From the NCBI RefSeq assembly GCF_020103755.1, contig NZ_JAHSQD010000019.1, forward strand, positions 1 to 38,779: a stretch of DNA of 38,779 nt, written 5' to 3'. The translations under genes and the position numbers were made by a program. The notes below the pieces were generated by a model. The model searched no databases and was not told the DNA's origin. It was given only the letters and a program-made list of their open reading frames with translations. The stretch is from Streptomyces sp. LS1784 (GTDB lineage: Bacteria; Actinomycetota; Actinomycetes; Streptomycetales; Streptomycetaceae). This document shows positions 542 through 31,635 of the stretch, piece by piece. Position 1 is the stretch's first letter, and the number at the start of each line of letters is the position of its first letter.

Positions 542-1324
542 TCAGGAGCGCTGGTCCGGCGGAAGCAGGAGGACGGCGAGGGCGTCGGCGCAGCTGCGGG
601 CGTGGCCGAGGAACCGGTCCAGCCGGTCGTCGGTGAGGTGCGCGGGCGTCGAGCGGACCGCCAGGGCGAACCGGGCCTGCCCGGCGCCGTCCAGGACGGG
701 TACGGCCACCGTCCGCACCCCGGCGGCCGACTCGCCGTCGTTGAGGGCGTACCCGGCCGCCCGGACTTTCGCCAACTCCTCCTCCAGGGCGGACGGTTCG
801 GTGATCGTGCGGTCGGTGAACGGCGTCAGCGGGCCGAGTGTCGACGGTGCCGTCGCGCCCGGGCGGGGCCAGGCCAGCAGGACCTTGCCGAGCGCTGTGG
901 AGTGCAGTGGGCGGCGCAGGCCCAGTCCGGTGTCCGGGCGGACCGAGCCTCCGACCAGGATCACCGCGTGCGCGCCGCTGCGGATCGCCAGATCGGCCGT
1001 CGCCTTGGTGCGCCGGGACAGCAGCTCAAGCTCGGGCCCGGCGAGGTGCAGCCCGCGCTGGTGGAAGGTGAGCTGGCCGAGTTCGGCGACGGCCGGACCG
1101 AGCCGGTAGCGCGCGGTCTGTTCGTCCTGCTCCAGGAATCCGGCGCTGACCAGCGTGCGGGCCAGCCGGTGCGCGGTGGAGACCGACAGGCCCATCCGGC
1201 GGGCCAGGTCCGAGGCGCTCAGGTCGGGGCCGTTGTCGTGGAAGCAGTGCAGCAGTCCGAGCGCGCGCTGGACGGCCTGCGCACCGGCCGGCGGACTCTG
1301 GACGGCGGTGGCGGCCTCGGCCAT
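542..1324 (-). CDS. IclR-family transcriptional regulator
   Basis: This 260-residue protein has an N-terminal winged helix (about residues 15-80: AVQRALGLLHCF, SASDLARRMGLSVSTAHRLARTL) followed by the IclR effector-binding domain, which includes the RRPLHSTALGKVLLA segment. The ATG at 1324 is chosen because a GAGGTG ribosome-binding site lies just before it. The frame stays open for about 115 more codons upstream, but that part is low-complexity and runs into the divergent promoter. The gene diverges from the organosulfur cluster. IclR proteins often control the adjacent catabolic operon, so this is a candidate regulator of it. That is inference from position only; ligand and target are unknown. 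Confidence 0.85.
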   Translation of the reverse strand: MAEAATAVQSPPAGAQAVQRALGLLHCFHDNGPDLSASDLARRMGLSVSTAHRLARTLVSAGFLEQDEQTARYRLGPAVAELGQLTFHQRGLHLAGPELELLSRRTKATADLAIRSGAHAVILVGGSVRPDTGLGLRRPLHSTALGKVLLAWPRPGATAPSTLGPLTPFTDRTITEPSALEEELAKVRAAGYALNDGESAAGVRTVAVPVLDGAGQARFALAVRSTPAHLTDDRLDRFLGHARSCADALAVLLLPPDQRS

Positions 1325-1567
1325 GGCACCTCGCGTTTCGGTTCGGGACTCCGGACGGGCGGCCGGAAGCGGTCTCAGCGTAGGGCAGACGGTGCTGCGG
1401 GAATGTGTCGACGACGTTGCAATGGAATGGCTTTGATGAACAACTGATCCCACCATGTGGCAAAGGCTTGCCTCCGGCTCACCTGCCGTGGAACGCTCCT
1501 TGCATCGCGCCGGACGGCCACTCGGGCCTGGCGGCGATTGCCCCGACTCCACGGAAGGAGAAGCACC

Positions 1568-1612
1568 GTGACGTCCCACCGGTGTCTCCCCTCCCGTGCG
1601 TGTTGTCGCTGA
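1568..1612 (+). CDS. Cys-rich leader peptide of the organosulfur operon
   Basis: This 14-codon ORF, MTSHRCLPSRACCR, starts at a GTG preceded by AAGGAG with 7 nt spacing, the best ribosome-binding site in the region. Three of the 14 codons are Cys, including a Cys-Cys pair near the end, and all three use TGT, the rare Cys codon in this GC-rich genome. It ends 143 nt before the desulfinase start. Short Cys-rich ORFs upstream of sulfur-acquisition genes are known in actinobacteria as cysteine-responsive attenuators: ribosome stalling at Cys codons under starvation changes downstream expression. Composition, position and signal strength fit that role here. The ORF was missed by length cut-offs. 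Function is inferred. Confidence 0.75.
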   Translation: MTSHRCLPSRACCR

Positions 1613-1667
1613 CCGAACGTCTTCCGCGCCGCCTGCCCCTTTCCTGCATCGTGGCGCACAACTCCCT

Positions 1668-1697
1668 TGCACACCAGGCCCAGTGGGCCGCCGTGCA
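1668..1697 (+). promoter_or_regulatory. Hairpin between leader peptide and desulfinase gene
   Basis: A nested inverted repeat lies in the leader: outer arms TGCAC (1668-1672) and GTGCA (1693-1697), inner arms GGCC (1677-1680) and GGCC (1686-1689). It starts 55 nt after the leader-peptide stop and ends 58 nt before the desulfinase start. This is where an attenuator structure would be expected. No U-tract follows, so if it acts, it probably does so through translation or Rho access rather than intrinsic termination. An anti-structure pairing partner was not established. Confidence 0.35.
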
Positions 1698-1755
1698 GGT
1701 AATCGACACCCAGTTTCTCCGGCTGCCGTCGGAGCCCCGTGGAGGACCGACTCCG

Positions 1756-2841
1756 TTGTCCAGTCGTACCCGGAACGCTTCCGTGCTTCCCGACACCCTC
1801 TGGTTCACCCGCTGTCCGGTGCCCACCGCGACCGGGATCGCCGCCGACCAGGGTTGGCTCGCCCGCGAGTTCGCCGCCGACGGCATCGCGGTCCGCTCGC
1901 TGCAGGACGCTCCGCCCGAAGTGGCCGCGGACCACCACTACACCCACGCGCTGACGGGCCTGTTCCGGGAGGGCGGCAACGTCCCGGCGCTGTGGGCCCG
2001 TTCGCGCGGTGAGGCGACCAGGCTGATCGGCCTCACCTGGATCGAGGAGCGCCAGGCGGTGCTGGTGCGGGCCGGTAGCGGCATCACCGAACCCGGGCAG
2101 CTGCGCGGGCTGCGGCTGGCGATCCCCCGTCATGACATCGGCATCGACTTCTGGCGGGCGATGGCGCTGGCCGGCTTCCGTGGCGCCCTCGGGCTCGCGG
2201 GCCTCACCCTGGCGGACGCCGAACCGGTGGACATTCCCGGCGCCCCGGACGGCGCGCAGTGGTCCGCCGAGCTGGCCGCGCTGCGGCGCGGCACGGTGGA
2301 CGCGGTGTACGTGAAGGGGGCGCTCGCCGTCGAGGCGGCCCGCCGGATCGGCGCGGAGGTGGCCGTGGAACTGGACGCGGCGCCGGACCGCAGGGTCCGG
2401 GTCAACAACGGCACGCCTCGGCCGATCACCGTCCACCAGCGGCTGCTGGACGAGCGGCCCGAGCTGGTCGCCCGTTTCCTCGCCGTGCTGCTGGAGGCCG
2501 CCGACTGGGCGGCGGAGCACCCGGAGGAGGTGGTCCGGATCCTGCAGGCCGAGACCGGCGCCGGGGCCGAGGGCGTCGCCGGGGCCTACGCGCCGGGCAG
2601 CCACCGCACCCTGCACCTGGACCTGTCGGCGGAGCGGCTGGAGTTGCTGGCGATGCAGGAACGATTCCTCGGAGAGCAGGGCTTCCTCGCCGCGCCGGTG
2701 GACGTCCAGGCGTGGGCCGACCCGGAGCCGCTTCGTGCGGCCCGCGAGCTGCTGCGCGAGCGGCGTGCGCGCGCCGGTGCCGATGCTGAGGCGGTTGCCG
2801 GAGCCGGTGCCGGCGCTGTTCGAATCACAGACTTCGGATAA
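1756..2841 (+). CDS. DszB-like sulfinate desulfinase / SsuA-fold protein
   Basis: This protein has the substrate-binding-protein fold of the NMT1/SsuA superfamily but resembles the biodesulfurisation enzyme DszB (2'-hydroxybiphenyl-2-sulfinate desulfinase). Near the N-terminus it has RCPVPTATG, matching the DszB region that carries the catalytic Cys. Downstream it has H61...R71-x-G-G74, with the same spacing as the DszB catalytic His, Arg and Gly (H60, R70, G73). Cys20 is the only cysteine in the protein. No signal peptide is present, which fits a cytoplasmic enzyme. The TTG at 1756 is chosen because GGAGGA lies 9 nt upstream; this gives 361 residues, against 365 for DszB. A longer frame from 1405 would run through the leader region. 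The gene heads an SsuABCD-like set, so it probably releases sulfite from a sulfinate. The substrate is unknown. Confidence 0.72.
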   Translation: MSSRTRNASVLPDTLWFTRCPVPTATGIAADQGWLAREFAADGIAVRSLQDAPPEVAADHHYTHALTGLFREGGNVPALWARSRGEATRLIGLTWIEERQAVLVRAGSGITEPGQLRGLRLAIPRHDIGIDFWRAMALAGFRGALGLAGLTLADAEPVDIPGAPDGAQWSAELAALRRGTVDAVYVKGALAVEAARRIGAEVAVELDAAPDRRVRVNNGTPRPITVHQRLLDERPELVARFLAVLLEAADWAAEHPEEVVRILQAETGAGAEGVAGAYAPGSHRTLHLDLSAERLELLAMQERFLGEQGFLAAPVDVQAWADPEPLRAARELLRERRARAGADAEAVAGAGAGAVRITDFG

Positions 2842-2890
2842 CAGCCTTCAGCTAACAGATTTCGAAAGTTGTCAGCTGTCGGCTGTCATC
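2837..2890. repeat. Intergenic palindromic element, TTTCGAAA core (copy A)
   Basis: An imperfect inverted repeat is exactly centred between 2863 and 2864, on TTTCGAAA (2860-2867). Outer arms GATAACAGCC-like (2837-2846) and GGCTGTCATC (2881-2890) pair with G-U wobble, and middle arms centre on CAGCT/AGCTG. It begins at the stop codon of the desulfinase gene and ends 21 nt before the next start, so it lies between two co-directional genes. The same core recurs near 7747 and 15657. Confidence 0.75.
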
Positions 2891-2911
2891 TGTCACTTGT
2901 TTGGAGAGCCC

Positions 2912-3940
2912 GTGAAGACCCCCCGCCTCGCCCTCGCCGCGACCGCGCTGCTCGCCTCCACCGCCCTGGCCGCCTGCGGCTCGTCCGCCGACGGGGCCAA
3001 GGCCTCCGCCGGAGACGGGGCCGGCGGCAAGGCCGACGTGGTGCTCCGGCTGCCCGACCCCGGCAACAACGGCTTCCTCGCCCGCGGCAAGAAGGACGGC
3101 TCACTGGACCGGGCCCTGGCCGTCGTCCACGCCAAGGTCGCCTGGACCGGCAGCGCCGGCCCCTTCGCCCCCGCCGCCCAGGCCCTCTCCGCCGACCAAC
3201 TGGACGTCGCCCAGGGCTCGATCACCTCGGCCGTCGCCGCGCTGGCCCAGAAGCCCGGCTTCAAGCTGTTCGCCCAGACCGCGCCCGACGGCGTCGGCGA
3301 GGGAATCCTGGTGAAGAACGACTCGCCCATCAAGTCCGTCCAGGACCTCGTCGGCCGGAAGGTCGCCGTCTCCCAGGGCGGCACCAGCGAGTACCTGCTG
3401 CTCAAGGCGCTGGCGAAGAACGGCGTCCCGGCCGACAAGGTGGAGCGGGTCTACCTGCGTGCCGACCAGACCTCCGGGGTCTTCAACTCCGGGCAGGTGG
3501 AAGCCTGGGCGACCTGGAACACCTTCTCGACGCCCGCCATCGCCAACGCCGGTGCGCACTTCCTGGTCAACGGCCAGGAGGTCGGCTCCGACAACTACGC
3601 CGTCTGGGCGGTGCGCAACGGCTTCGCCGACAAGCACCCCGAGGTGGTCAAGGCCTTCTACACCTACCTGCGGGACAACGGCGAGAAGGAGAAGGCCGAC
3701 CCGGCCGGCTACCTCAACGTGTTCACCGATGCCGGCCCGACCGCCGTCACCCCCGCCGAGAAGGTCGTCGCAGTGAACGTCAGCAGGCAGGGCGCCCCGG
3801 CCGGCGCCATCTCCGACGCCGACATCGCCCGCTTCGGGACGGTCGCCCAGTTCTTCGCCGACCAGAACGTCACCAAGCAACTGGTGGACGTCAAGCCGTA
3901 CCTGATCGACGTCAACAAGCTCGGGGACGGTGCCAAGTGA
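2912..3940 (+). CDS. Sulfonate/organosulfur ABC transporter substrate-binding lipoprotein
   Basis: This 342-residue SsuA/TauA/NrtA-type solute-binding protein has a lipoprotein signal peptide: KTPR, a hydrophobic stretch, then the lipobox LAAC at about residues 19-22. That Cys is its only cysteine. The mature part has typical family segments such as DVAQGSITSAVAALAQ, IKSVQDLVGRKVAVSQGGTSE and QVEAWATWNTFS. It starts at GTG 2912 with GGAGAG upstream. It would sit on the outer face of the membrane and deliver an organosulfur compound to the permease encoded next, whose start overlaps this gene's stop. A long palindromic element lies just upstream. The substrate class (sulfonate or sulfinate) is inferred from the neighbouring SsuD and DszB-like genes. 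Confidence 0.85.
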   Translation: MKTPRLALAATALLASTALAACGSSADGAKASAGDGAGGKADVVLRLPDPGNNGFLARGKKDGSLDRALAVVHAKVAWTGSAGPFAPAAQALSADQLDVAQGSITSAVAALAQKPGFKLFAQTAPDGVGEGILVKNDSPIKSVQDLVGRKVAVSQGGTSEYLLLKALAKNGVPADKVERVYLRADQTSGVFNSGQVEAWATWNTFSTPAIANAGAHFLVNGQEVGSDNYAVWAVRNGFADKHPEVVKAFYTYLRDNGEKEKADPAGYLNVFTDAGPTAVTPAEKVVAVNVSRQGAPAGAISDADIARFGTVAQFFADQNVTKQLVDVKPYLIDVNKLGDGAK

Positions 3941-4803
3941 TCGCCGCAAGCGCGGAGTTCGCGCCCGCCGACACCCGGGCGGCGCTGGACGCCGGTCTGG
4001 TCGCCCCGCAGAGCCGGCGGCGCCGGCCGCGCCCCCGCGCGCTCGCCGTGACCCTGCGGACCATCGGTCCGCTCGCCCTGATCGGCGGCTGGGCCATCGC
4101 CTCCGCCACCGGCGCACTCACCCAGGACGTGCTCGCCTCGCCCACTCAGGTCGCCCAGGCCGTCGGGGAGTTGTGGGGAAACGGCCAGTTGACCGACGCC
4201 CTGTCCGTCTCCCTCACCCGCGCCGGGCTCGGTCTGTTCCTCGGTGCGACCGCCGGACTGGTGCTCGGCGTGGTCACCGGATTCACCCGCCTCGGCGAGG
4301 AGTTGCTCGACTCCGCGATCCAGGTCCTGCGCACCGTACCGTTCCTGGCCCTCGTCCCACTGTTCATGGTGTGGTTCGGCATCACCGAGACCGCGAAGGT
4401 CGCCCTGATCGGGGTCGCCACCAGCTTCCCGATGTACGTGTCCGCCTCCGGCGGGGTCCGCAGTACCGACCGCAAGCTGGTCGAGGCGATGCGCAGCTTC
4501 GGCCTCGGCCGCTGGGCGATCGTGCGTACGGTCGTACTGCCCGGCGCGCTGCCCTCGCTGCTGTCCGGACTGCGCCTGTCGATGACGCTCAGCGTGATCG
4601 CCCTGATCGCCGCCGAGGAGATCAACTCGACCGAGGGCATCGGGTACTTGATGGCCCAGGCGCAGAACTACTCGCGTACCGACGTCCTCGCCGTCTGCAT
4701 CCTGATCTACGGGCTGCTCGGCCTCGGCGCCGACGGCATCGTCCGAGTCCTGGAGCGCGTGCTGATGCCGTGGCGCCAGGCCGTCCCGGGAGCGGCCCGA
4801 TGA
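3937..4803 (+). CDS. ssuC: Sulfonate-type ABC transporter permease (SsuC-like)
   Basis: This 288-residue BPD-type integral membrane permease has about six hydrophobic segments and the cytoplasmic EAA loop, EAMRSFGLGRWAIVRTVVLP, which contacts the ATPase. The hydrophilic N-terminal 35 residues end in a basic patch. The GTG start overlaps the stop of the binding-protein gene, and its own stop overlaps the ATPase start, so the three transporter genes are translationally coupled. The gene has little cysteine (one residue). The family handles sulfonates, taurine, nitrate and related anions. The neighbouring SsuD monooxygenase favours sulfonates. Confidence 0.88.
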   Translation: MIAASAEFAPADTRAALDAGLVAPQSRRRRPRPRALAVTLRTIGPLALIGGWAIASATGALTQDVLASPTQVAQAVGELWGNGQLTDALSVSLTRAGLGLFLGATAGLVLGVVTGFTRLGEELLDSAIQVLRTVPFLALVPLFMVWFGITETAKVALIGVATSFPMYVSASGGVRSTDRKLVEAMRSFGLGRWAIVRTVVLPGALPSLLSGLRLSMTLSVIALIAAEEINSTEGIGYLMAQAQNYSRTDVLAVCILIYGLLGLGADGIVRVLERVLMPWRQAVPGAAR

Positions 4804-5567
4804 CCGCCGACACATCCACCACCGCCACGCTCTCCCCCTCTTCGCTCCCTTCCCCCTCGGTGTCCGAGGAGGCGGTGCCGGCCGTCCATCTGCGCGGTCT
4901 GCGCCGGGTGTTCGGCACCCGGGCCGTGCTCGACGGGGTCGACCTCTCCATCGCCCGCGGGGAGTTCGTCGCCCTGCTGGGCGCCAGCGGGACCGGCAAG
5001 ACCACGCTGCTGCGGATCCTCGGGGCGCTCGACCGGGCGGACGAGGGCACCGTGCTCGTCCCGCCGGTCCGTACCGTGGTGTTCCAGGAGCCCCGGCTGA
5101 TGCCGTCCAAGCGGGTGCTGGCCAACGTCACGGTCGGCCTGCCGCGGGGCGCCGCGACCCGGGAGACCGGGCTGAAGGCGCTCGCCGAGGTCGGCCTGGA
5201 GCGGCACGCCGAGGCCTGGCCGGCCACCCTCTCGGGCGGCGAGGCGCAGCGCGTGGCGCTCGCCCGGGCGCTCGTTCGGGAGCCGCAACTCCTTCTGCTC
5301 GACGAACCGTTCGCCGCGCTGGACGCACTCACCCGGCTGCGCATGCAGGACCTCGTCGGCGACCTGGTGCGCCGCCACCGCCCGGCGGTGCTGCTGGTCA
5401 CCCACGACGTGGACGAGGCCGTACGGCTCGCCGACCGGGTCGTGGTGCTGCGCGAGGGCCTGTTCGCGCGGGACGAAGCCGTCACCGTCCAGCGCCCGCG
5501 CGACCCGGCGGATCCTGCCTTCGCCGACTTGCGGCGCCGCCTGCTCACCGACCTCGGCGTCCACTGA
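4800..5567 (+). CDS. ssuB: Sulfonate-type ABC transporter ATP-binding protein (SsuB-like)
   Basis: This 255-residue cytoplasmic ATPase energises the SsuC-like permease. Walker A GASGTGKTT is at residues 61-69, then the Q-loop VVFQEPRLMP, signature LSGGEAQRVALARAL, Walker B LLLLDEPFAALD and H-loop LLVTHD. It shows the NrtD/SsuB pattern and is short (no regulatory C-terminal domain). The first 25 residues are a Ser/Thr/Pro-rich extension. Start and upstream stop overlap as ATGA at 4800-4803. The protein has no cysteine. Confidence 0.9.
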   Translation: MTADTSTTATLSPSSLPSPSVSEEAVPAVHLRGLRRVFGTRAVLDGVDLSIARGEFVALLGASGTGKTTLLRILGALDRADEGTVLVPPVRTVVFQEPRLMPSKRVLANVTVGLPRGAATRETGLKALAEVGLERHAEAWPATLSGGEAQRVALARALVREPQLLLLDEPFAALDALTRLRMQDLVGDLVRRHRPAVLLVTHDVDEAVRLADRVVVLREGLFARDEAVTVQRPRDPADPAFADLRRRLLTDLGVH

Positions 5568-5654
5568 CGTCCGTGATCCCCCCTGAATGCCCCGGCATTT
5601 CCCTGATTCCCCTGACTCCCGACAAACCAAGCCCGCACCACCGGAGTTGACCAG

Positions 5655-6560
5655 ATGACCGTCACCCTCGGCGTCCACGCCAGCAACCCCTCGCTCTACT
5701 ACCTCGCCCGACTCCCGTACCTGGACGAGGAACTGGCCCCGCTCGGCGAGACCGGCGCCTTCCACCACTACGCGGACGGCACCCGCACCGGCCCGCTGCT
5801 CGCCGAGGGTGTCATCGACTTCGGCGGCACCGGCTCCACCCCGCCGATCACCGCCCAGGCGGCCGGTCACGACCTGGTCTACGCGGTGGTCTCGGCACCC
5901 CGCCCGGACCACGGCGCCCTGCTGGTGTCGGACTCCGGCCCGGTGCGGACGGTCGCGGACCTCAAGGGCACCACCGTCGTCCTCGCCGTGGGCTCCTGGC
6001 AGACCCACCTGCTCGCCAAGGCCCTGCACGCACAGGGGCTTTCGTACGGCGAGGACGTCACCCCGGCGCGCCCGGCGGCCGGTGAGGACCAGGCCCGGAG
6101 GCTGCGCGACGGCGAGATCGCAGGCTGGATCGCCCAGGGCGCCGAACTCGCCGCCGCCCGCCGCAGCGGGGAGTTCCGGGAGCTGATCCGCACCGGCGAC
6201 GTCATCGCCGACCGCTCGGTGTTCTTCACCCGCCGGGACTTCGCGACCGAGCGCCCCGAGGTGGTTGCCGCGATCGTGACCGCACTGCGCCGGGCGGATG
6301 CCTGGGCGGCCGCCAACCCGGCCGAGGCCGCCGCGATCGCCGCCGAGGAGCTGGGCGGCACGGCCGCCGACTGGCAGTCCGCGCTGGGTGCACTGCCCTG
6401 GCAGCTGGAGCCCGCCACCGCCGGGTTCGTCGCCGAGCAGCAGGAGGCCGCGAACATCTTCCACGGTGTGGGCTTCATCGACCGGGCGCTGACCGTCTCC
6501 GACGCCCACCTCCCCGCGCTGGAGGCCCCGGTGGCCGCCGCGCTCGCGAAGGCGGTCTGA
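5655..6560 (+). CDS. SsuA-like substrate-binding protein without export signal
   Basis: This 301-residue protein has the NMT1/SsuA binding-protein fold. The segment VIDFGGTGSTPPITAQAAG matches the SsuA ligand-site motif, and VADLKGTTVVLAVGSWQTHL the following lobe. It starts MTVTLGVHASNPSLYYL at an ATG with GGAG upstream, directly in the first beta strand, so there is no signal peptide or lipobox and it should be cytoplasmic. It contains no cysteine and only the initiator methionine. Its stop is 3 nt before the SsuD-like gene, so the two are probably coupled. Unlike the desulfinase homologue at 1756, it lacks the Cys-His-Arg set. It may be an intracellular binding or feeder protein for the monooxygenase, or a non-Cys enzyme. 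The role is unproven. Confidence 0.75.
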   Translation: MTVTLGVHASNPSLYYLARLPYLDEELAPLGETGAFHHYADGTRTGPLLAEGVIDFGGTGSTPPITAQAAGHDLVYAVVSAPRPDHGALLVSDSGPVRTVADLKGTTVVLAVGSWQTHLLAKALHAQGLSYGEDVTPARPAAGEDQARRLRDGEIAGWIAQGAELAAARRSGEFRELIRTGDVIADRSVFFTRRDFATERPEVVAAIVTALRRADAWAAANPAEAAAIAAEELGGTAADWQSALGALPWQLEPATAGFVAEQQEAANIFHGVGFIDRALTVSDAHLPALEAPVAAALAKAV

Positions 6561-6563
6561 CCC

Positions 6564-7640
6564 GTGGCCTCCGAAGTCCTCTGGTACATCGTCCCGCGCG
6601 AGGGGCACTACCCCTGGGAACCGGCCGGTCGCCGCCCGGTGGACCTCCGTTACCTCCAGCAACTGGCCGGCACTGTCGAGCGGTTGGGCTATACCGGCGC
6701 CCTGCTCGCGACCGACCTGTACGACGTCTGGACGCTCGGCAGCGCGCTCGCGGCCGCCACCACCCCGGCCTTCAAACCGCTGCTGGCCGTCCACCCGGGG
6801 CTGGTCTCGCCCACCCTGCTGGCCAAGATGGCGCTCAGCTTCGACCACCTGCACGGCGGCCGGCTGCGCTTCAACGTGGTCAACGGATCGACCGCGCAGC
6901 TGCGCGAGTACGGCCTGGATGTCGAGCACGACGACCGCTACCGGCTCAGCGGCGAGTACTGGTCGATCGTGAAGCGCCTGACGGCGGGCGAAGTCTTCGA
7001 CCACAAGGGCGAGTTCTACGAGCTGAAGAACGCCGGTGCGAGTCTGCGCGACCTCCCCCCGGTGCAGCCCGGCGGCATCCCGCTCTGGTTCGGCGGCAGC
7101 TCGGCGGTCGGCATCGAGATGGCGGCCCAGCACGTGGACGTCTACCTGACCTGGGGTGAGCCGCCGCACCTGCTCAAGGAGAAGCTGGACCTGGTCCGTG
7201 AGCGCGCCGCCGCCCACGGGCGGAGCCTGCGGATCGGGCTGCGGCTGCACCTGATCGTCCGGGACACCGAGGACGAGGCCTGGGCGGCCGCCGACCGACT
7301 GCTGGACGTCACCAGCGAGGCGACCTACGCGCGCCGGCTGGGCGAGACGAAGGGGGAGGACGGGGTCGGCTGGCAGCGGCAGTTCCGCCAGCACGGCGGC
7401 AGGGTGCCGGCGCGGGCCCGGGAGCTGGAGGTCCACCCCAACCTCTGGCCGGGGATGAGCCTGTTCCGTCCCGGCCCGGGGACGGCGGTGGTCGGCTCGA
7501 CGGCCCAGGTGGTCGAGCGCCTGCAGGAGTTCGAGGCGCTGGGCGTCGACACCTTCATCCTCTCGGGCAACCCGCTGCTGGAGGAGGCCCACCGGGTTGC
7601 AGAAACGGTTCTGCCTGCCCTGGGTGTCAAGCGACCCTGA
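6564..7640 (+). CDS. ssuD: FMNH2-dependent alkanesulfonate monooxygenase (SsuD-like)
   Basis: This 358-residue luciferase-like flavin monooxygenase closely follows E. coli SsuD in its second half: YLTWGEPPHLLKEKLDLV, then IGLRLHLIVRDTEDEAW (containing the SsuD Arg/His pair), HPNLWPGMSLFRPGPGTA and DTFILSGNPLLEEAHRV. SsuD cleaves C1-C14 alkanesulfonates to aldehyde and sulfite with FMNH2 and O2. A flavin reductase partner (SsuE) is not in this window and must be supplied elsewhere. The protein has no cysteine at all, so the Cys near the E. coli active site is absent. The GTG at 6564 is 4 nt after the previous stop. It is the last gene of the cluster; a large palindrome follows. Confidence 0.88.
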   Translation: MASEVLWYIVPREGHYPWEPAGRRPVDLRYLQQLAGTVERLGYTGALLATDLYDVWTLGSALAAATTPAFKPLLAVHPGLVSPTLLAKMALSFDHLHGGRLRFNVVNGSTAQLREYGLDVEHDDRYRLSGEYWSIVKRLTAGEVFDHKGEFYELKNAGASLRDLPPVQPGGIPLWFGGSSAVGIEMAAQHVDVYLTWGEPPHLLKEKLDLVRERAAAHGRSLRIGLRLHLIVRDTEDEAWAAADRLLDVTSEATYARRLGETKGEDGVGWQRQFRQHGGRVPARARELEVHPNLWPGMSLFRPGPGTAVVGSTAQVVERLQEFEALGVDTFILSGNPLLEEAHRVAETVLPALGVKRP

Positions 7641-7831: not shown

Positions 7832-8833
7832 TCAGCGGCTCAGTCGGTCGATCTCCGCCAGCTCCTCCGCCGTCAGCGGCCCTCCCGCCAGCGCGTCGAG
7901 GTTCTGGTCCAGCTGGGCCACGCTGCTCGCGCCGATGATCACCGAGACCACCCGCGGATCCCGCAGCACCCAGCACAGCGCCAGCTGTGCCAGCGTCTGC
8001 CCGCGTCCCTCGGCGACCTTGGCCAGCGCCCGCAGCTGCTCCAACTTCGGCCCGGTCAGGGCCTCCTCGGTGAGGAACTTCCCGACCGACATCCGCGAGC
8101 CCGCCGGCACCTCTCCGGACAGGTAGCGGTCGGTCAGCAGCCCCTGGGCCAGCGGCGAGTAGGCGATCAGGCTGGTCCGGGTGTCGCCCACCGCGTCCAG
8201 CACGCCGCCGTCCTCCACGTACCGGTTGAGGATCGAGTACGCCGACTGGTTCAGCAGCACCGGCGTCCCCAGCTCGCGCAGGATCGCCACCGCCTCCCGG
8301 TGCTGCTCCGCCGGGTAGTTGGAGATCGCCGCGTACAGCGCCTTGCCCGAGCGCACCGCGCTGTCCAGCGCCCCCATCGTCTCCTCGATCGGGGTGTCCG
8401 GGTCGTACCGGTGCGAGTAGAAGACGTCCACGTAGTCCAGCCCCATCCGGTCCAGCGACTGGTCGAGGCTGGCCAGCAGGTACTTGCGGCTGCCGCCGTT
8501 GCCGTACGGGCCGGGCCACATGTCCCAGCCGGCCTTGGTGGCGATGAACAGCTCGTCCCGGTACGGCCGGAAGTCCTGGGCGAACAGGTAGCCGAAGTTG
8601 CGCTCGGCACTGCCGTACGGCGGGCCGTAGTTGTTCGCCAGGTCGAAGTGGGTGACGCCCCGGTCGAAGGCCCGGCGCAGCACCGCCCGCTGCACCTCCA
8701 GCGGTTGGGCGTCACCGAAGTTGTGCCAGAGCCCGAGCGAGACGGCGGGCAGCTGGACGCCGCTGCGGCCGGCTTTCCGATAGGTCATCGAGTCATAGCG
8801 GTCATCCGCGGCGAGGTAGCTCATGCCGGACAT
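7832..8833 (-). CDS. Aldo-keto reductase
   Basis: This 333-residue NADPH-dependent aldo-keto reductase, of the YghZ-like L-glyceraldehyde-3-phosphate reductase type, shows the catalytic tetrad in context: Asp and Tyr in HFDLANNYGPPYGSAE, Lys in LFIATKAGWD and His in VFYSHRYDPDTPIEETM. The C-terminal cofactor-binding strand reads VVSVIIGASSVAQLDQN. The start MSGMSYLAADDRYDSM at 8833 has GGTGG upstream; the codon at 8824 is an alternative. Longer in-frame extensions read into the divergent regulatory region and are basic, low-complexity sequence. It is convergent with the sulfur cluster and divergent from the next monooxygenase. Nothing ties it firmly to sulfur metabolism. Confidence 0.87.
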   Translation of the reverse strand: MSGMSYLAADDRYDSMTYRKAGRSGVQLPAVSLGLWHNFGDAQPLEVQRAVLRRAFDRGVTHFDLANNYGPPYGSAERNFGYLFAQDFRPYRDELFIATKAGWDMWPGPYGNGGSRKYLLASLDQSLDRMGLDYVDVFYSHRYDPDTPIEETMGALDSAVRSGKALYAAISNYPAEQHREAVAILRELGTPVLLNQSAYSILNRYVEDGGVLDAVGDTRTSLIAYSPLAQGLLTDRYLSGEVPAGSRMSVGKFLTEEALTGPKLEQLRALAKVAEGRGQTLAQLALCWVLRDPRVVSVIIGASSVAQLDQNLDALAGGPLTAEELAEIDRLSR

Positions 8834-8863
8834 CTTGCCACCCGGCCACGGCGGCTCAACCCC

Positions 8864-8893
8864 TTGCCCCCGCTTCCGGCCGGTGCCTATCCT
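8864..8893 (+). promoter_or_regulatory. Promoter of the leader peptide / monooxygenase transcript
   Basis: TTGCCC (8864-8869) and TATCCT (8888-8893) are separated by 18 nt and fit a housekeeping sigma promoter. Transcription would start near 8900, about 34 nt before the Cys leader peptide and about 310 nt before the monooxygenase gene. The call rests on hexamer match and position only. Confidence 0.45.
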
Positions 8894-8933
8894 CACGGAG
8901 GATCGTGTGTGTGCGAGGCGCGGGGGAGGCGAA

Positions 8934-8999
8934 ATGGCAGTCCGGACCGTGACCGTCGTCGCAGCCCGCTGTTGTCGCCGCCGCAGCACCGACCGCTGA
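8934..8999 (+). CDS. Cys-Cys leader peptide upstream of the second monooxygenase
   Basis: This 21-codon ORF reads MAVRTVTVVAARCC followed by a basic tail, RRRSTDR. The ATG has a strong GGGGGAGG ribosome-binding site 5 nt upstream. The two adjacent Cys codons are both TGT, the rare synonym here, exactly as in the leader peptide at 1568. The ORF ends 209 nt before the monooxygenase start. The ARCCR core is like the short leader peptides found upstream of sulfur-assimilation genes in Streptomyces and relatives. It is probably a cysteine-responsive attenuator for the downstream gene. That a second, separately transcribed gene carries the same device suggests co-regulation with the SsuABCD cluster. 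Function is inferred. Confidence 0.75.
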   Translation: MAVRTVTVVAARCCRRRSTDR

Positions 9000-9120: not shown

Positions 9121-9208
9121 CTCACCGAGCCCCGGGACTCCACCCGGCCCCTGCCGATCGTGTTCCGGGAGTACTCCGAGCCCCTCCCGAGCACCCAAGG
9201 AGTCCGCC

Positions 9209-10228
9209 GTGCGGTTCACCGTCTCGTCCCTCGTGGCCAACGCCCCGGACCCGGTCACCGGCGTCCGGCGCACCCCGCAGCAGAAGCTGTACAGCGTCAT
9301 CGACCAGGCGCTCCTCGCCGAGCAACTCGGCTACGACGGCTTCGGCGTGGGGGAGCGGCGCGGTGAGCCGTTCCTCTCCCCGGCGCCGCCCCTGCTGCTC
9401 GGCGCCATCGCCGCCCGCACCTCCGCCATCCGGCTGTTCACCACGGTGACGGTGCTCAGCGTCCTCGACCCGGTCCGGGTCGCCGAGGACTATGCGATGC
9501 TCGACCAACTCTCGGGCGGTCGCCTGGAGTTGATTGTCGGCAAGGGCAACGACCCGCGCCACTTCGGGCTGTTCGGCCTCTCCGAGGAGCGACAGTGGGA
9601 GGCGCTCGCCGAGAACTACGGCCTGCTGCGCAGGCTCTGGCGCGAGGAGAAGGTGACCTGGGAGGGCTCGACCCGCCCGCCGCTGAAGGACGCCACCGTC
9701 TGGCCCCGCCCGCTCCAGGACCCGATCCCGGTGTGGCACGGAAGCGCGACCAGCACGCAGTCCACCGACCTCGCCGCCCGCCACGGCGACCCGCTCTTCT
9801 CCGCCAACTCCTTCCACCCGCTGGAGAAGTACCGGGCGCTGGTCGAGCACTACCGTGAGCGCTGGGAGCACTACGGGCACGACCCGGAGCAGGCCCGGGT
9901 GGGCGCGAGCTTCGGTGGACTGTACGTCGCCAAGCGTTCGCAGGACGCCGTCGAGGGCTTCCGCCCGTACTGGAACGCGCTGTTCGACTCGGCCGCCGGC
10001 CGGCACAACAACTCGCCGTTCCGGTCCTTGGACGACGCGCTGGAGCGCGGTTCGGCGCTGGTCGGCAGTCCGCAGCAGGTGATCGAGAAGATCCACCGGT
10101 ACCACGAGGCCTTCGGCAACGAGGTGGTCGGCATCGGGGTGGACACGCTCACCGAAGGGGCCCAGCGCGAGCAACTGGAGCTGTTCGCGAGCGAGGTGGC
10201 CCCGGAGATCCGCCGCGCGCTGCCGTAG
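9209..10228 (+). CDS. Luciferase-like flavin monooxygenase (LLM family)
   Basis: This 339-residue LLM-class flavin-dependent oxidoreductase has typical segments: LLAEQLGYDGFGVGE near the N-terminus, LLLGAIAARTSAIRLFTTVTVLSVLDPVRVAED, the family motif LDQLSGGRLELIVGKG, and an insertion-segment tail with VGSPQQVIEKI. It starts at GTG 9209, preceded by AAGGAG at 6 nt spacing. The upstream in-frame extension is rejected because it reads through the leader peptide region. It has no cysteine and only two methionines, like the proteins of the Ssu cluster, and it sits behind a Cys-Cys leader peptide. A role in oxidative release of sulfur from an organosulfur compound is likely. The substrate is not identifiable, and it is not close enough to SsuD or DszA to name. 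Confidence 0.85.
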   Translation: MRFTVSSLVANAPDPVTGVRRTPQQKLYSVIDQALLAEQLGYDGFGVGERRGEPFLSPAPPLLLGAIAARTSAIRLFTTVTVLSVLDPVRVAEDYAMLDQLSGGRLELIVGKGNDPRHFGLFGLSEERQWEALAENYGLLRRLWREEKVTWEGSTRPPLKDATVWPRPLQDPIPVWHGSATSTQSTDLAARHGDPLFSANSFHPLEKYRALVEHYRERWEHYGHDPEQARVGASFGGLYVAKRSQDAVEGFRPYWNALFDSAAGRHNNSPFRSLDDALERGSALVGSPQQVIEKIHRYHEAFGNEVVGIGVDTLTEGAQREQLELFASEVAPEIRRALP

Positions 10229-10359
10229 CCGCCCAGGTCCGCCGCCCGCCCGCGCAGTGCGCCGCGCACCCCCTACGCGGCGTGACGCCGGCCACCCTCC
10301 GTGACGTGACGCGCGCCACCAGGCGCGCCGGAATGCCGTTCAGCGGTGCGGGGGATGAC

Positions 10360-10413
10360 GAACGGTCGAGGGGCCGTGGCCGCCGGGGGGCGGCGCACGG
10401 CCCTCGATCGTTC
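10360..10413 (+). terminator. Terminator-like hairpin after the LLM monooxygenase
   Basis: A long stem is formed by GAACGGTCGAGGG... (from 10360) and ...CCCTCGATCGTTC (to 10413), with one bulge and a G-U pair, and an inner GCCGCC/GGCGGC stem. A second stem, GCGCGCC-acca-GGCGCGC (10311-10328), lies before it. No U-run follows, as is common in Streptomyces. The 263-nt gap holds these hairpins and the TetR operator. Confidence 0.55.
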
Positions 10414-10462
10414 CGGCCGGCGGGGTCCTCCGAGAGCTCGGGCGGAGTCCGCGCTGGCCTTC

Positions 10463-10482
10463 TGTACCTACTGGTATGTACA
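10463..10482. promoter_or_regulatory. Operator palindrome of the TetR regulator
   Basis: The sequence TGTACcTACtgGTAtGTACA is a 20-bp dyad, perfect except at the spacer positions 10468, 10472, 10473 and 10477. It lies 9 bp upstream of the TetR ATG at 10492. TetR proteins commonly bind such sites overlapping their own promoter, so autoregulation of this operon is likely. Confidence 0.65.
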
Positions 10483-10491
10483 GTGATCCGC

Positions 10492-11058
10492 ATGAGCACC
10501 CAGGACCGCCTCATCGAGAGCACCCAGGCCCTCCTCTGGGAGCGCGGCTACGTCGGCACCAGCCCCAAGGCCATCCAGCAGCGCTCCGGGGTCGGCCAGG
10601 GCAGCATGTACCACCACTTCACTGGCAAGCCCGACCTTGCGGCCGCCGCCCTGCGCCGCAGCGCCGAGCAGATGCGGGGCGTCGCCGAGGCCGACCTCGC
10701 CGCCCCCGGCACCGCCTACGACCGGATCGCCGCCTACCTGCACCGCGACCGCGACGTCCTACGCGGCTGCCGGATCGGCCGGATGGCCCAGGACCCGGAC
10801 GTGGTCTCCGACCCGCACCTGCGCGCACCCGTCGAGGAGACCTTCGACTGGCTGCGCGGCCGCATCGCCGGACTGGTCGCCGAAGGCCAGGCGGGCGGCG
10901 AGTTCGCCCCCGGCCTGGACCCGGCCGACACCGCCGCCGCCGTGGTCGCCGTCGTCCAGGGCGGCTATGTCCTGGCCCGCGCCGCCGACAGCGCCGAGCC
11001 GTTCGACCGGGCCGTTCGCGGCGCCCTCGGCCTGCTCGCGACACACCGCACGGCCTGA
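10492..11058 (+). CDS. TetR-family transcriptional regulator
   Basis: This 188-residue regulator has a TetR HTH in residues 5-50 (DRLIESTQALLWERGYVGTS, then VGQGSMYHHFTGKPDL). The all-helical C-terminal half resembles the LmrA/YxaF-type TetR ligand domain. The ATG at 10492 follows the palindromic operator; a GTG at 10483 is also in frame but falls against the operator. It appears to be the first gene of a four-gene run with the DUF4865, carboxymuconolactone decarboxylase and phosphotriesterase-family genes, which it probably represses. The inducer is unknown. Confidence 0.87.
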   Translation: MSTQDRLIESTQALLWERGYVGTSPKAIQQRSGVGQGSMYHHFTGKPDLAAAALRRSAEQMRGVAEADLAAPGTAYDRIAAYLHRDRDVLRGCRIGRMAQDPDVVSDPHLRAPVEETFDWLRGRIAGLVAEGQAGGEFAPGLDPADTAAAVVAVVQGGYVLARAADSAEPFDRAVRGALGLLATHRTA

Positions 11059-26480: not shown

Positions 26481-27866
<1,386 letters not shown>

Positions 27867-27933
27867 GGGGTGACTCCTATGGGGGAGGGCTGGGAGGGGC
27901 GCGCACCGAAGGGCGCACGCCCTCCCCGGCCGG

Positions 27934-29397
27934 TCAGGACGGTGTCGCCGTCGGCACCGTCGCGCCGGAGGCCTGGCCGGACGTGGTATGGCGGGCGGTC
28001 CCGACGTGGTGGAAGAGCAGGTTGAGCAGGACGGCCATCACGGAGCCGGCCGAGATCCCCGAGTGCATCAGGGTCCTTACGGCCTCCGGGAAGGAGTCGT
28101 AGAACGTCGGCACGGCGATCGGGATGATGCCGACACCGAGTGAGACCGACACCAGGATGGTGTTCGAGCCGGACTCCATCCCCGCCTCCGCGAGGGTGCG
28201 GATGCCGCTGGCCGCGACCGTGCCGAAGAGCACGATCCCGGCGCCGCCGAGGACGGGCTGCGGTACCAGGGAGACGAGCGAGCCCAGCACGGGGAACAGC
28301 CCCAGCAGGACCAGGATGGCTCCGCCGGCCGCGACCACGTAGCGGCTGCGGATCCTCGTCAGCGCCACCAGCCCGATGTTCTGGGCGAAGGCGCTGGCGG
28401 CGAAGCCGTTGAAGACGGGACTGAGCGCGGTGGCCAGACCGTCGGCCCGCAGGCCGGCGGCGAGGGTGGGCTCGTCCGCCTCGCGATCGACGATCTTGCC
28501 GAGGGCGAGCATGTCGGCGGTGGACTCGGTCATCGAGACCATCATGACGATGCACATCGAGACGATCGCGGCGGCGTCGAACATCGGCGCGCCGAAGTGG
28601 AACGGGGAGGGGAGCGAGAAGACGTTCGCGTCCTTGACCGCGCCGAAGTCGGCGAGCCCCAGCGGGAAGGCGATCAGGGTGCCGAGCGCCAAGCCGATGA
28701 GCAGCGACAGCTGCTGCCAGAAACCGTGCAGCAGCCGGTTGCAGAGCACCACCGCGACGAGGGTGATCGCGGCGAGGCCGATGGCCCGCATGGAGCCGTA
28801 CCCGGGGGCGCCCGGCGAGCCGCCGCGCGCCCAGTTGACCGCCACCGGAAGCAGGGACACCCCGATGAGGGTGATCACGGTGCCCTGGACGACCGGGGGG
28901 AAGAACCGGATGAGCTTGCAGAAGTACGGTGCCGCGAGGAAGCACAGGAGCCCCGCGACGATCACCGATCCGAAGATCACCGGGAGGGCGTCCTTCGGTC
29001 CGTGCTCCTTCGCTATGGCGATCATGGGCGCGACCCCCGCGAAGGAGACGCCGTTCACGAACGGCAGTCGCGCGCCGATCTTCCAGATGCCGAGCGTCTG
29101 GAGGAGGGTGGCCAGTCCGGCGGTGAACAGGCTGGCCGAGATGAGCAGGGCGAGTTCGGCGGCGGAGAGCCCGACGCCGGCGCCGACGATGAGCGGGGGT
29201 GCGACGACCCCCGCGTACATCGCGGCGACGTGCTGGAGTCCGGTGGAGAACAGCTTCACCGGGGGCAGCAACTCGTCCACGGGGTGGGTCCCGGGCCGGG
29301 GCGGCTCGCCGGGGAGGTGTGCCGACACGCCGTCCGGGCCGTGCGCTCTTTCCGGGGTGGAACCGCCGTCTGTACTGCTGGTGTTGCTGGGTGCCAT
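27934..29397 (-). CDS. NCS2 purine (xanthine/urate) permease
   Basis: This 487-residue membrane symporter of the nucleobase:cation symporter-2 family has about 12-14 hydrophobic segments. It carries the family Q-H motif in TM1 (GLQHVAAMYAGVVAPPLIVG) and the signature QNIGLVALTRIRSRYV. A Gln at the first signature position is typical of xanthine/urate rather than uracil carriers. The ATG at 29397 has GAGGGG 5 nt upstream and follows a hydrophilic N-tail. It lies between 8-oxoguanine deaminase and uricase on the same strand, so it probably imports urate or xanthine for this pathway. Confidence 0.9.
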   Translation of the reverse strand: MAPSNTSSTDGGSTPERAHGPDGVSAHLPGEPPRPGTHPVDELLPPVKLFSTGLQHVAAMYAGVVAPPLIVGAGVGLSAAELALLISASLFTAGLATLLQTLGIWKIGARLPFVNGVSFAGVAPMIAIAKEHGPKDALPVIFGSVIVAGLLCFLAAPYFCKLIRFFPPVVQGTVITLIGVSLLPVAVNWARGGSPGAPGYGSMRAIGLAAITLVAVVLCNRLLHGFWQQLSLLIGLALGTLIAFPLGLADFGAVKDANVFSLPSPFHFGAPMFDAAAIVSMCIVMMVSMTESTADMLALGKIVDREADEPTLAAGLRADGLATALSPVFNGFAASAFAQNIGLVALTRIRSRYVVAAGGAILVLLGLFPVLGSLVSLVPQPVLGGAGIVLFGTVAASGIRTLAEAGMESGSNTILVSVSLGVGIIPIAVPTFYDSFPEAVRTLMHSGISAGSVMAVLLNLLFHHVGTARHTTSGQASGATVPTATPS

Positions 29398-29713
29398 GTC
29401 GAGCCCCTCTTGTGCCCGTGGCTCCCGGCGCGCCCGTGGCGCTGGAGTGCGGCTGGTGCTGGTGTGACCGAGAGCGGGACGGCGGTGCAAGGATCCCTCG
29501 GCCGGCCTCTCCAGTGCCCCGGGCCGGCCGCCGCGAGGCAGACACGAACTCCGGTGGGTGGGGGTGGGGGTGGAGAAACTGCTGGTACGGATGGAACGCG
29601 CGGTGGTGCGGTGGTGGGGTCGGTGGAGCGGCCCGCCCGGACTCGACCGGCCCGTGGGGACCGGAGGGTGCGGCGATTCCGGGCGGTGTCCACCTGGTGG
29701 TGGGGCGGGGAGG
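29398..29713. other. Gap between uricase and permease genes, with G-run tract
   Basis: No coding frame or clear operator is seen. On the plus strand, 29553-29573 contains consecutive G-runs (GG, GGG, GGGGG, GGGGG, GG, each separated by a single T), a potential G-quadruplex. The permease promoter must lie here on the minus strand, but no convincing hexamer pair was identified. Confidence 0.4.
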
Positions 29714-30634
29714 TCAGGCGACCGGGATGACCGGGACGACGCCCTCGCGGTGCACGGTGCCCTCGATCAGGCCGTACATGCGGTCCGCGGCGAAGTAGAC
29801 CTCGTTGTCGTTCTTGAGGCCGAACGGCTCCAGGTCGACCAGGAAGTGGTGCTTGTTGGGCAGTTCGAGCCGGACCTCGTCCACCTCGGCGCGGTTGTTG
29901 AGGACCCGGGTGCCCATCGCGTGCAGGGTCTGCTGCAGCGAGTAGGAGTAGGTCTCGGCGAAGGCCTCCAGCATGTGCCGCTTCACCTGGGTGTAGGAGC
30001 GGTTCCAGTTGGGCTGGGCCTCGCCGTCCCTGCCGCTGTAGCCGAACTTCCAGCGGGCGGTGACCTGGGTGGCGAGGATGCGGTCGTAGGATTCCTGGAG
30101 GGTGGTGTAGCCGTCCTTGATGTAGCCCCAGAACTCCGAGTTGGTGGAGTTCAGGACGACCAGGTCCTTCAGGCCGGAGATCACCTGGACGGACTCGCCG
30201 TCGTAGACGATCTCGCTGGTGCGGGTCTCCTGGCCGCTGCGGACGAAGGAGTGGCCGACCTCCTCCGAGCCGATGAAGCGGGCCGAGCTGTCCGGGGTCC
30301 GGATCCGCTCCCAGGCGTACTCCTCGATCCGGATCCGGGCGCTGTGCACGACGCCGCGCTCGGTGTCGTCGACGAAGTGGCGCGCCAGGAGGATGCCGAA
30401 GGCCTCGGCCGACTCGATGCCGTACTTCTTGGCGAAGGCGTAGACGGTGTTCTTGGTGGTGTCGGTGGGAAGGCAGTTGGCGTTGGACCCCGTGAGGTGG
30501 ACGTCCTCGAACTCGCCGCGGAGCGAGACCGAGACGTTCAGGTCCTTGATCTCGTGCCGGGTGGAGTCGCGGTGGATCCGGACGATGCGGCTCTCCGCCT
30601 TGCCGTACTGGTTCTGGCCGAGCACGTGGGCCAT
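29714..30634 (-). CDS. uox: Urate oxidase (uricase)
   Basis: This 306-residue cofactor-free uricase has the N-terminal YGKAESRIVRI with the catalytic Lys, LPTDTTKNTVYAFAKK with the catalytic Thr, ILARHFVDD, Arg/Gln ligands in the second half, and the C-terminal signature LPNKHHFLVDL. It oxidises urate to 5-hydroxyisourate and H2O2. The ATG at 30634 has AGGAG 7 nt upstream. It is 32 nt after the HIU hydrolase gene, in the same operon (OHCU decarboxylase, HIU hydrolase, uricase), so the three steps from urate to (S)-allantoin are encoded together. Confidence 0.95.
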   Translation of the reverse strand: MAHVLGQNQYGKAESRIVRIHRDSTRHEIKDLNVSVSLRGEFEDVHLTGSNANCLPTDTTKNTVYAFAKKYGIESAEAFGILLARHFVDDTERGVVHSARIRIEEYAWERIRTPDSSARFIGSEEVGHSFVRSGQETRTSEIVYDGESVQVISGLKDLVVLNSTNSEFWGYIKDGYTTLQESYDRILATQVTARWKFGYSGRDGEAQPNWNRSYTQVKRHMLEAFAETYSYSLQQTLHAMGTRVLNNRAEVDEVRLELPNKHHFLVDLEPFGLKNDNEVYFAADRMYGLIEGTVHREGVVPVIPVA

Positions 30635-30666
30635 GACGTGGCTCCTAAGCTTTCAAGGTCGGTCCA

Positions 30667-31601: not shown

Positions 31602-31635
31602 GAGTGGACCTCCTGAAGAGTGGTGCCACCCGGAA

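What the first reader, a model, noticed from the sequence alone, without database searches (positions are those of the whole stretch)
1568..7640. A DszB-like desulfinase leads an SsuABCD sulfonate operon
Seen: the protein at 1756 has one Cys, in RCPVP, plus His61...Arg71-x-G-G74. Known: DszB of biodesulfurising Rhodococcus uses Cys27, His60, Arg70 and Gly73 with the same His-to-Arg-to-Gly spacing. Inferred: the operon pairs an FMNH2 monooxygenase with a desulfinase, which would allow use of an aromatic or other sulfonate/sulfinate outside the usual SsuD range. No dszA or dszC is present, and no flavin reductase, so this is not the 4S pathway as known.
Basis: partly seen in the sequence, partly recalled or inferred. 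Interest (0 to 1): 0.75.

Follow-up and report, generated by a model that had tools for sequence, protein, structure and literature searches.

The report
Desulfinase heading a sulfur-starvation operon
An actinomycete carries a conserved operon whose first protein is a relative of the fuel-desulfurising enzyme DszB with the same active-site residues; it would release sulfite from organic sulfinates when sulfur is scarce, and a short cysteine-rich leader peptide is predicted to switch the operon on.

Summary
The protein at 1756-2841 is closer to DszB than to any solved transport protein, by sequence and by predicted fold. It aligns Cys20/His61/Arg71/Gly74 with DszB Cys27/His60/Arg70/Gly73. Of 246 listed homologues only a truncated one lacks the Cys. 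It has no signal peptide. In 72 of 80 related loci it sits with ssuC, ssuB, an SsuD-like oxygenase and a second, signal-less SsuA-like protein. Except for the permease, the proteins are poor in Cys+Met, as expected under sulfur starvation. Mechanism (inferred): a cytosolic desulfinase frees sulfite from a sulfinate made by the operon's oxygenase. The operon kind is not new: by gene order it is a shorter version of the bds operon of Gordonia terrae C-6, whose bdsABC turned benzothiophene into o-hydroxystyrene, and of a Rhodococcus IGTS8 cluster raised on dibenzothiophene. The substrate here is untested. I rate it a new variant of a known kind.

The parts
542..1324 (-). IclR-family regulator, divergent from the operon
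   Evidence: PF01614 and PF09339; start at MAEAATAVQ. An IclR gene over 50% identical lies within 8 kb of the desulfinase gene in 64 of 80 loci.
1568..1612 (+). Cysteine-rich leader peptide (uORF) VTSHRCLPSRACCR*, GTG start, Shine-Dalgarno GGAAGGAG upstream
   Evidence: Sequence; found through conserved intergenic words. 42 of 44 type I leaders (the window's included) hold an SD-led uORF with Cys among its last four residues, against a mean of 2.2 (max 6) in 100 first-order resampled sets (rule set). No Rfam match at E<=0.1 in 1300-1800.
1756..2841 (+). DszB-like sulfinate desulfinase (predicted), no signal peptide; Cys20 codon at 1813-1815
2912..3940 (+). SsuA-type binding lipoprotein (signal sequence with LAAC lipobox)
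   Evidence: PF09084; TIGR01728 126 bits, under its cut-off. The lipobox is read from the sequence.
3937..4803 (+). SsuC-type permease
   Evidence: PF00528; PRK11365 SsuC 210 bits, under its cut-off
4800..5567 (+). SsuB-type ATPase
   Evidence: PF00005; PRK11247 sulfonate ATPase 224 bits, under its cut-off (searched from 4782); ATGA overlap with ssuC
5655..6560 (+). SBP2: second SsuA-like protein without signal peptide, 0 Cys and 0 internal Met
   Evidence: PF09084; best PDB sequence match SsuA 2x26, E=4.9e-27. Cys/Met count. Model pLDDT 95.9, first strand at residue 2, best fold match SsuA. The 31 aligned orthologues start at the same strand; 11 loci have a stop codon directly before that start.
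6564..7640 (+). SsuD-like FMNH2-dependent monooxygenase
   Evidence: PF00296; TIGR03565 336 bits, under its cut-off of 518. Best PDB match E. coli SsuD E=6.8e-88. Keeps SsuD W196/R226/H228/R297, lacks H11/E20/C54/Y331.

Best explanation
The operon encodes a DszB-type protein without a signal peptide, beside a sulfonate-type importer and an SsuD-like oxygenase, and this protein is predicted to hydrolyse an organic sulfinate to sulfite in the cytosol when sulfur is scarce. Steps: (1) SsuA, SsuC and SsuB would import an organosulfur compound. (2) The SsuD-like enzyme, with reduced flavin supplied by reductases encoded elsewhere, likely oxidises it to a sulfinate, as DszA does to dibenzothiophene sulfone. 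(3) Cys20, His61 and Arg71 would then release sulfite, which feeds cysteine synthesis. (4) The Cys-rich leader peptide would let ribosomes stall at Cys codons when cysteine is low and so free translation of the first gene; the IclR protein is a likely second control. SBP2 likely binds the same kind of ligand in the cytosol. Shown: homology and active-site residues, operon conservation, the leader ORF, low Cys+Met content (not in the permease), no signal peptides on the two proteins. Inferred: activity, substrate, order of steps, attenuation, role of SBP2. A protonation mechanism by Cys, proposed for DszB from calculations, would favour an aryl or vinyl sulfinate (inferred).
Against: Only about 28% identity to DszB. 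DszB Trp155 and Leu152 have no counterpart in the alignment, so the biphenyl pocket is not fully kept. The window's oxygenase keeps SsuD's R226, H228 and R297; if it works as SsuD does, it yields sulfite directly and needs no desulfinase. The operon lacks the short oxygenase (bdsB) of the Gordonia operon. PMC3868597 says strain IGTS8 seems unable to desulfurise benzothiophene, although it appears to have the similar cluster, so cluster type does not fix the substrate. SsuC is not sulfur-poor. None of the 11 type II leaders examined held the Cys uORF, so that control is not general. The leader's RNA fold is only weakly better than shuffles (z -2.0). A Burkholderia paralogue has Ser for Cys, so not every family member need be an enzyme.
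Confidence: 0.62

Rival explanations
1. Parallel routes: the importer brings in both sulfonates and sulfinates; the SsuD-like enzyme frees sulfite from sulfonates and the DszB-like enzyme frees sulfite from ready-made sulfinates. The two enzymes do not share a pathway.
For: The window's oxygenase keeps R226, H228, R297 and W196 of E. coli SsuD, whose known reaction gives sulfite directly. The importer is of the sulfonate type.
Against: In the 27 type II and III loci the oxygenase has Asp or Glu for His228 and lacks Cys54 and Tyr331, yet the desulfinase stays. In Rhizobium acidisoli the gene lies between a luciferase-like monooxygenase and an acyl-CoA dehydrogenase, with peptide-type ABC genes instead of ssuABC in the stretch shown.
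Confidence: 0.27
2. The protein is a non-catalytic, cytosolic binding or regulatory protein derived from SsuA that senses or carries sulfonates.
For: Same fold class as SsuA. SBP2 in the same operon is signal-less and has no Cys. One Burkholderia family member has lost the Cys.
Against: The single Cys is kept in 245 of 246 listed homologues of a protein otherwise poor in sulfur residues, together with H61 and RxGG. DszB is nearer than any SsuA in sequence, profile and fold.
Confidence: 0.07
3. The protein cleaves another C-S bond (a sulfonate or sulfite ester) with the same residues rather than a sulfinate.
For: Residues invariant in the 46-row set but different in DszB (E98, R215, G219, P221, R222; N217 in 45 of 46) suggest another or an additional charged group in the ligand (inference).
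Against: The residues named for sulfinate binding in DszB (Cys27, His60, Arg70, Gly73) are kept. BdsA of the sister operon is annotated and used as a sulfinate desulfinase, although the paper itself writes 'sulfinate or sulfonate'.
Confidence: 0.1

Closest known systems
bdsABC operon region of Gordonia terrae C-6 (GTC6_01585 to 01620; PMC3868597, section 7 and passages read)
   Same: As listed there: binding protein, permease, ATPase, desulfinase (bdsA), FMNH2 monooxygenase (bdsB), 'alkanesulfonate monooxygenase' (bdsC), hypothetical protein, binding protein.
   Different: The window is type I: desulfinase first, no short oxygenase (bdsB) and no 235-aa gene, SBP2 before the oxygenase, a different SsuD-like enzyme (36-39% to type III), a Cys leader. 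BdsA's own sequence was not retrieved, so the match rests on gene order.
[quoted passage not shown] PDB 2de2, 2de3)
   Same: Fold; Cys, His, RxGG; a single Cys (DszB: PMC8557817).
   Different: About 28% identity; separate, well-supported branch; L152 and W155 without counterpart; own invariants E98, R215, R222; not beside dszA and dszC.
Rhodococcus qingshengii IGTS8 peg4799-4806 (PMC8557817, passages read)
   Same: SsuA, SsuB, 'DBT desulfurization enzyme B, SsuA/DszB', SsuD and SsuA listed in numerical order among proteins raised on dibenzothiophene; fits type III.
   Different: Genes 4800, 4803 and 4805 are not in the passages seen; sequence not retrieved; no function assigned there beyond 'sulfur acquisition' and transport.
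SsuEADCB alkanesulfonate operon of E. coli
   Same: SsuA, SsuB, SsuC and SsuD types.
   Different: No SsuE here; adds a desulfinase, a signal-less SsuA and a Cys leader.
Cys-rich uORF attenuators of mycobacteria (PMC4633059, passages read; Canestrari et al. 2020, title seen in a reference list)
   Same: Short ORF with Cys codons near its end, before sulfur genes.
   Different: Here SD-led, before a desulfinase-ssu operon in Streptomycetaceae; response to cysteine untested.

Membership tests
DszB-type sulfinate desulfinase | Catalytic Cys27 | tested here: met
   C20 aligned with C27; kept in 45 of 46 diverse rows
DszB-type sulfinate desulfinase | His60 and the R70-x-G-G73 motif | tested here: met
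   H61 44 of 46; R71, G73 and G74 46 of 46
DszB-type sulfinate desulfinase | Nearest solved fold is DszB | tested here: met
DszB-type sulfinate desulfinase | Biphenyl pocket (F61, W155, F203 named in PMC6100217; L152 recalled) | tested here: inconclusive
   F61 is Y/F in 43 of 46 rows and F203 is W/Y/F in 46 of 46, but W155 and L152 fall in a gap of all 46 rows, in a poorly alignable stretch
DszB-type sulfinate desulfinase | Operon with dszA and dszC | tested here: not met
   Neighbours are ssuA, C, B, SBP2 and ssuD-like. So I do not call it a dsz operon or DszB itself.
DszB-type sulfinate desulfinase | Releases sulfite from a sulfinate | not testable with these tools
   Needs an assay
bds operon type | Desulfinase in one operon with sulfonate ABC genes and SsuD-like oxygenase | tested here: met
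   Window and 72 of 80 loci; L148, L149, L154
bds operon type | Short second oxygenase (bdsB) present | tested here: not met
   3 nt between SBP2 and ssuD, 87 nt between ssuB and SBP2 and 70 nt after the desulfinase gene leave no room; hence 'variant'
bds operon type | Sequence homology to BdsA (KC831580) | not tested
   Record not held; a primer-site search in 59 genomes of the genus and in the fetched loci gave no convincing match
SsuA-type transport binding protein | Signal peptide or lipobox | tested here: not met
   Protein 1756-2841 has only a short polar tail before its first strand, SBP2 none; judged by eye, no signal-peptide program was run
SsuEADCB operon | Flavin reductase SsuE in the operon | tested here: not met
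   None among the genes; 3 PF01613 and 12 PF03358 matches elsewhere in the genome
Cys-responsive attenuator | Cys codons in a conserved leader ORF before sulfur genes | tested here: met
   42 of 44 type I leaders; 0 of 11 type II leaders examined
Cys-responsive attenuator | Expression responds to cysteine | not testable with these tools
   Needs a reporter

The most novel reading that the evidence does not exclude
Two binding-protein folds have moved into the cytosol of this operon: one became a cysteine enzyme, and the other (SBP2), stripped of nearly all Cys and Met, works as an intracellular ligand carrier that hands sulfonates or sulfinates from the importer to the oxygenase and the desulfinase. 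The whole is a self-sparing sulfur-scavenging machine switched by a Cys-codon leader in Streptomycetaceae.
Probability: 0.25. Interest if true: 0.72.

Novelty: new variant of a known kind. Interest (0 to 1): 0.55.

Why it matters
Nearly all listed relatives that carry a name are called substrate-binding proteins of ABC transporters. If the reading is right, desulfinases are common in Streptomycetaceae and other actinomycetes and not confined to fuel-desulfurising strains. The natural substrates of biodesulfurisation enzymes could then be sought, and the operon offers new catalysts. The Cys leader and the signal-less SsuA are each directly testable.

Tried and rejected
Rejected: (1) Plain transport protein: no signal peptide, DszB nearer than SsuA. 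(2) Full 4S pathway: no dszA or dszC in the operon. (3) SBP2 as a second desulfinase of the same chemistry: no Cys, best match SsuA. (4) Rfam element in the leader: no match at E<=0.1. (5) A strong leader hairpin: only z -2.0.

Led nowhere: finding BdsA itself, by protein search P0230 and by the published primer in 59 genomes of the genus (matches at 2-3 mismatches only; the ten loci fetched held no family member). Paper searches (open PMC library only, judged by titles and abstract starts) listed no study of this protein in Streptomyces or Kitasatospora; most subscription papers are not held.

Limits: the 80 loci were picked with patterns of which one includes the Cys, so they were not used to count Cys conservation; the protein lists used instead are best-scoring relatives, hence biased to likeness. 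The operon typing is a script rule; L087 was put in type I although its order differs. The gene caller used codon composition and kept only 41 desulfinase, 50 ssuA, 33 ssuC, 46 SBP2 and 7 ssuB genes from 75 actinomycete loci (5 proteobacterial loci left out); ssuD-like genes (69) include any copy nearby. The leader test skipped L086 and L087, its rules were set, and related loci are not independent. One search used 16 of the 45 type I loci. In the tree the outgroup branches are long.
Full report
OBSERVATION. The frame 1756-2841 is as described: 361 residues, TTG start behind GGAGG, a single Cys (residue 20 in RCPVP), His61 and Arg71-Glu-Gly73-Gly74. Against PDB sequences the only matches below E=0.04 are DszB entries (2de2, E=7.7e-16; 2de3, 2.4e-14). 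The alignment has no gap round the Cys and puts C20, H61, R71, G73 and G74 on DszB C27, H60, R70, G72 and G73. PMC12168087 (passages read) lists Cys27, His60, Arg70 and Gly73 as the active site. PMC6100217 (passages read) adds that C27S is inactive, that RXGG is conserved in DszB homologues and that Ser25 bonds to His60; here Thr18 stands in that place.

FAMILY. Three protein searches each found over 1,800 relatives at E<=0.001 among about 8,000 scored candidates (1,911, 1,868 and 1,879), of which 120 per search are listed. Nearly all that carry a name are called substrate-binding proteins of ABC transporters; a few are called monooxygenase, soxB or 2'-hydroxybiphenyl-2-sulfinate desulfinase. 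In the first list C20 is present in 119 of 120 (the other lacks the N-terminus) and H61, R71, G73 and G74 in 120 of 120; 118 of 120 have exactly one Cys. In the further 126 proteins all of T18, C20, H61, R71, G73, G74, E98, R215 and R222 are present in 126 of 126, and 124 have exactly one Cys. In a diverse 46-row set that includes proteobacteria, C20 is in 45, H61 in 44, and R71, G73 and G74 in 46. The Cys exception is a Burkholderia paralogue with Ser. A profile of these 46 scores DszB at 132.9 bits and three SsuA-type proteins at 20-26. The tree puts DszB and a 61%-identical DszB from genome G584 as a separate pair beside the family (99/89 for the family branch; outgroup branches long). The protein is thus a DszB relative in its own clade, not DszB.

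OPERON. Downstream lie ssuA (2912-3940, lipoprotein), ssuC (3937-4803), ssuB (4800-5567), SBP2 (5655-6560) and an SsuD-like monooxygenase (6564-7640); an IclR gene is divergent (542-1324). SBP2 is SsuA-like, has no signal peptide, and has no Cys and no Met after the start. The 31 orthologues aligned begin at the first strand, and 11 of the loci have a stop codon directly before that start. Its model (pLDDT 95.9) matches SsuA best. Of 80 loci from named genomes, within 8 kb on the same strand ssuB is found in 77, ssuC in 74, an SsuD-like gene in 77, SBP2 in 72; the full set in 72: 45 of type I (as in the window), 12 of type II and 15 of type III. The 8 others are five proteobacterial loci and three actinomycete loci (L067, L080 and L082, the last on a short contig). 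In 7 of 9 type II and III loci read in detail a further short luciferase-like gene precedes the SsuD-like gene (three such genes scanned). In the same genus 36 of 70 genomes hold a strong copy, one of them split in two pieces, and two more have only weak matches. In the class sample it is 5 of 148; 13 further genomes match at under 30 bits only, beside ssuB/ssuC-type genes. In a sample of 401 genomes of the family of the Prescottella genome G217, 54 match P0230 at E<=1e-60.

SULFUR STARVATION. Cys+Met content is low in the desulfinase (median 0.62%), ssuA (0.59%), SBP2 (0.0%) and ssuD (1.04%) against 1.98% in 392 flanking genes; ssuC is not low (2.43%), and ssuB (1.06%) rests on 7 genes. The leader holds a short SD-led ORF, 1568-1612, VTSHRCLPSRACCR*. 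Counterparts in Streptomyces read ...RRHIDLARVSSAACR* and the like. 42 of 44 type I leaders have such an ORF with Cys in its last four residues, against a mean of 2.2 and a maximum of 6 in 100 resampled sets; the stricter rule (also three Cys or RRH[IV]DL) gives 39 of 44 against a mean of 0.47 and a maximum of 3. Both rules were written after one search had shown the peptides, and the loci are related. In one search a fixed end pattern found it in 36 of 57 intergenic regions; none of the 11 type II regions there held it, and type III leaders were not examined. PMC4633059 (passages read) proposed Cys-rich uORFs as attenuators in mycobacteria; a 2020 paper by Canestrari et al. on this is known to me from its title in a reference list. 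Response to cysteine is untested here, and the predicted fold of the leader is only weakly better than shuffles (z -2.0).

OXYGENASE. The window's SsuD-like protein keeps E. coli SsuD W196, R226, H228 and R297 but has Arg, Pro, Leu and Asn at H11, E20, C54 and Y331. In 27 type II and III loci H228 is Asp in 26 and Glu in one, and C54 is Thr in all 27. The importance of these SsuD residues is recalled, apart from Arg226, whose role is named in a reference title. So the oxygenase is not simply SsuD, and it differs between operon types while the desulfinase stays. Flavin reductases are present elsewhere in the genome.

PRECEDENTS. PMC3868597 (section 7 and passages read) reports in Gordonia terrae C-6 the genes 01605 (bdsA, desulfinase), 01600 (bdsB) and 01595 (bdsC); its table also lists 01610, 01615, 01620 (ATPase, permease, binding protein) and 01590, 01585 (hypothetical, binding protein), all eight raised on benzothiophene (92- to 188-fold by RNA-seq). 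E. coli extracts with bdsABC, DszD, FMN and NADH made o-hydroxystyrene from benzothiophene. The link to bds is by gene order; the BdsA sequence was not held. PMC8557817 (passages read) lists peg4799 SsuA, 4801 SsuB, 4802 SsuA/DszB, 4804 SsuD and 4806 SsuA among proteins raised on dibenzothiophene. Against a simple equation, PMC3868597 says IGTS8 seems unable to use benzothiophene.

MECHANISM. I commit to a cytosolic, Cys-dependent sulfinate desulfinase acting after the SsuD-like oxygenase (serial). Parallel action is the main rival. PMC6100217 computes that Cys27 of DszB acts as a proton donor to an aromatic carbon, which would suit aryl or vinyl sulfinates such as the one implied in the benzothiophene route (inference). 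DszB pocket residues F61 and F203 are aromatic in most rows (F61: Y/F in 43 of 46; F203: W/Y/F in 46 of 46), whereas W155 and L152 have no counterpart. The true substrate is unknown.

VERDICT. The operon is a new, short variant of a kind already seen in Gordonia and Rhodococcus. The signal-less SsuA and the Cys leader are additions.

Noticed in passing
L007:6230-7303 (Burkholderia cenocepacia plasmid record): A family paralogue with Ser for the catalytic Cys and no His61, beside two paralogues that keep the Cys: a possible pseudo-enzyme.
   Followed up: partly
L003:7787-11195 (Rhizobium acidisoli conjugative plasmid pRapFH23a): Gene order luciferase-like monooxygenase, DszB-like protein, acyl-CoA dehydrogenase family protein, which recalls the order dszA-dszB-dszC.
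   Followed up: partly
L002:9004-18213 (Variovorax paradoxus plasmid record): The DszB-like gene is followed on the same strand by sulfurtransferase, amino acid transporter, cysteine dioxygenase and cystathionine beta-lyase genes, hinting at small aliphatic sulfinates.
   Followed up: no
L067 (Streptomyces bikiniensis), about 10201-10516: A partial ssuA match (140 aa) is followed closely by an ssuD match, and ssuC, ssuB and SBP2 are not found: a deletion or an assembly error.
   Followed up: no
G169:C1:1134823-1135787 (same genus): The desulfinase gene is split into two overlapping pieces in different frames: frameshift or sequencing error.
   Followed up: no
window 1449-1460: Word CCCACCATGTGG (CCACATGGTGGG on the other strand) recurs in 18 of 57 iclR-desulfinase intergenic regions, with a variant CCACATCATGGG in 13; possible IclR operator.
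   Followed up: no
window 7832-8989 (-) and about 9164-10228 (+): An aldo/keto reductase and a second luciferase-like monooxygenase (best NCBIfam match CE1758 type, under its cut-off) flank the operon in Kitasatospora-like loci (for example L029-L032, L034-L036, L044) but not in most other Streptomyces loci.
   Followed up: partly
window about 26481-37684: A run of ORFs that look like purine and allantoin breakdown (deaminase, permease, uricase, allantoinase, glyoxylate-route enzymes); names recalled from reading the translations, not searched.
   Followed up: no
L153 about 9569 (G584) and G568:C1:123783-124385: Genome G584 carries a DszB 61% identical to the Rhodococcus enzyme; G568 carries a type III operon and a second, weaker match with the same model span as the one in G584.
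   Followed up: partly
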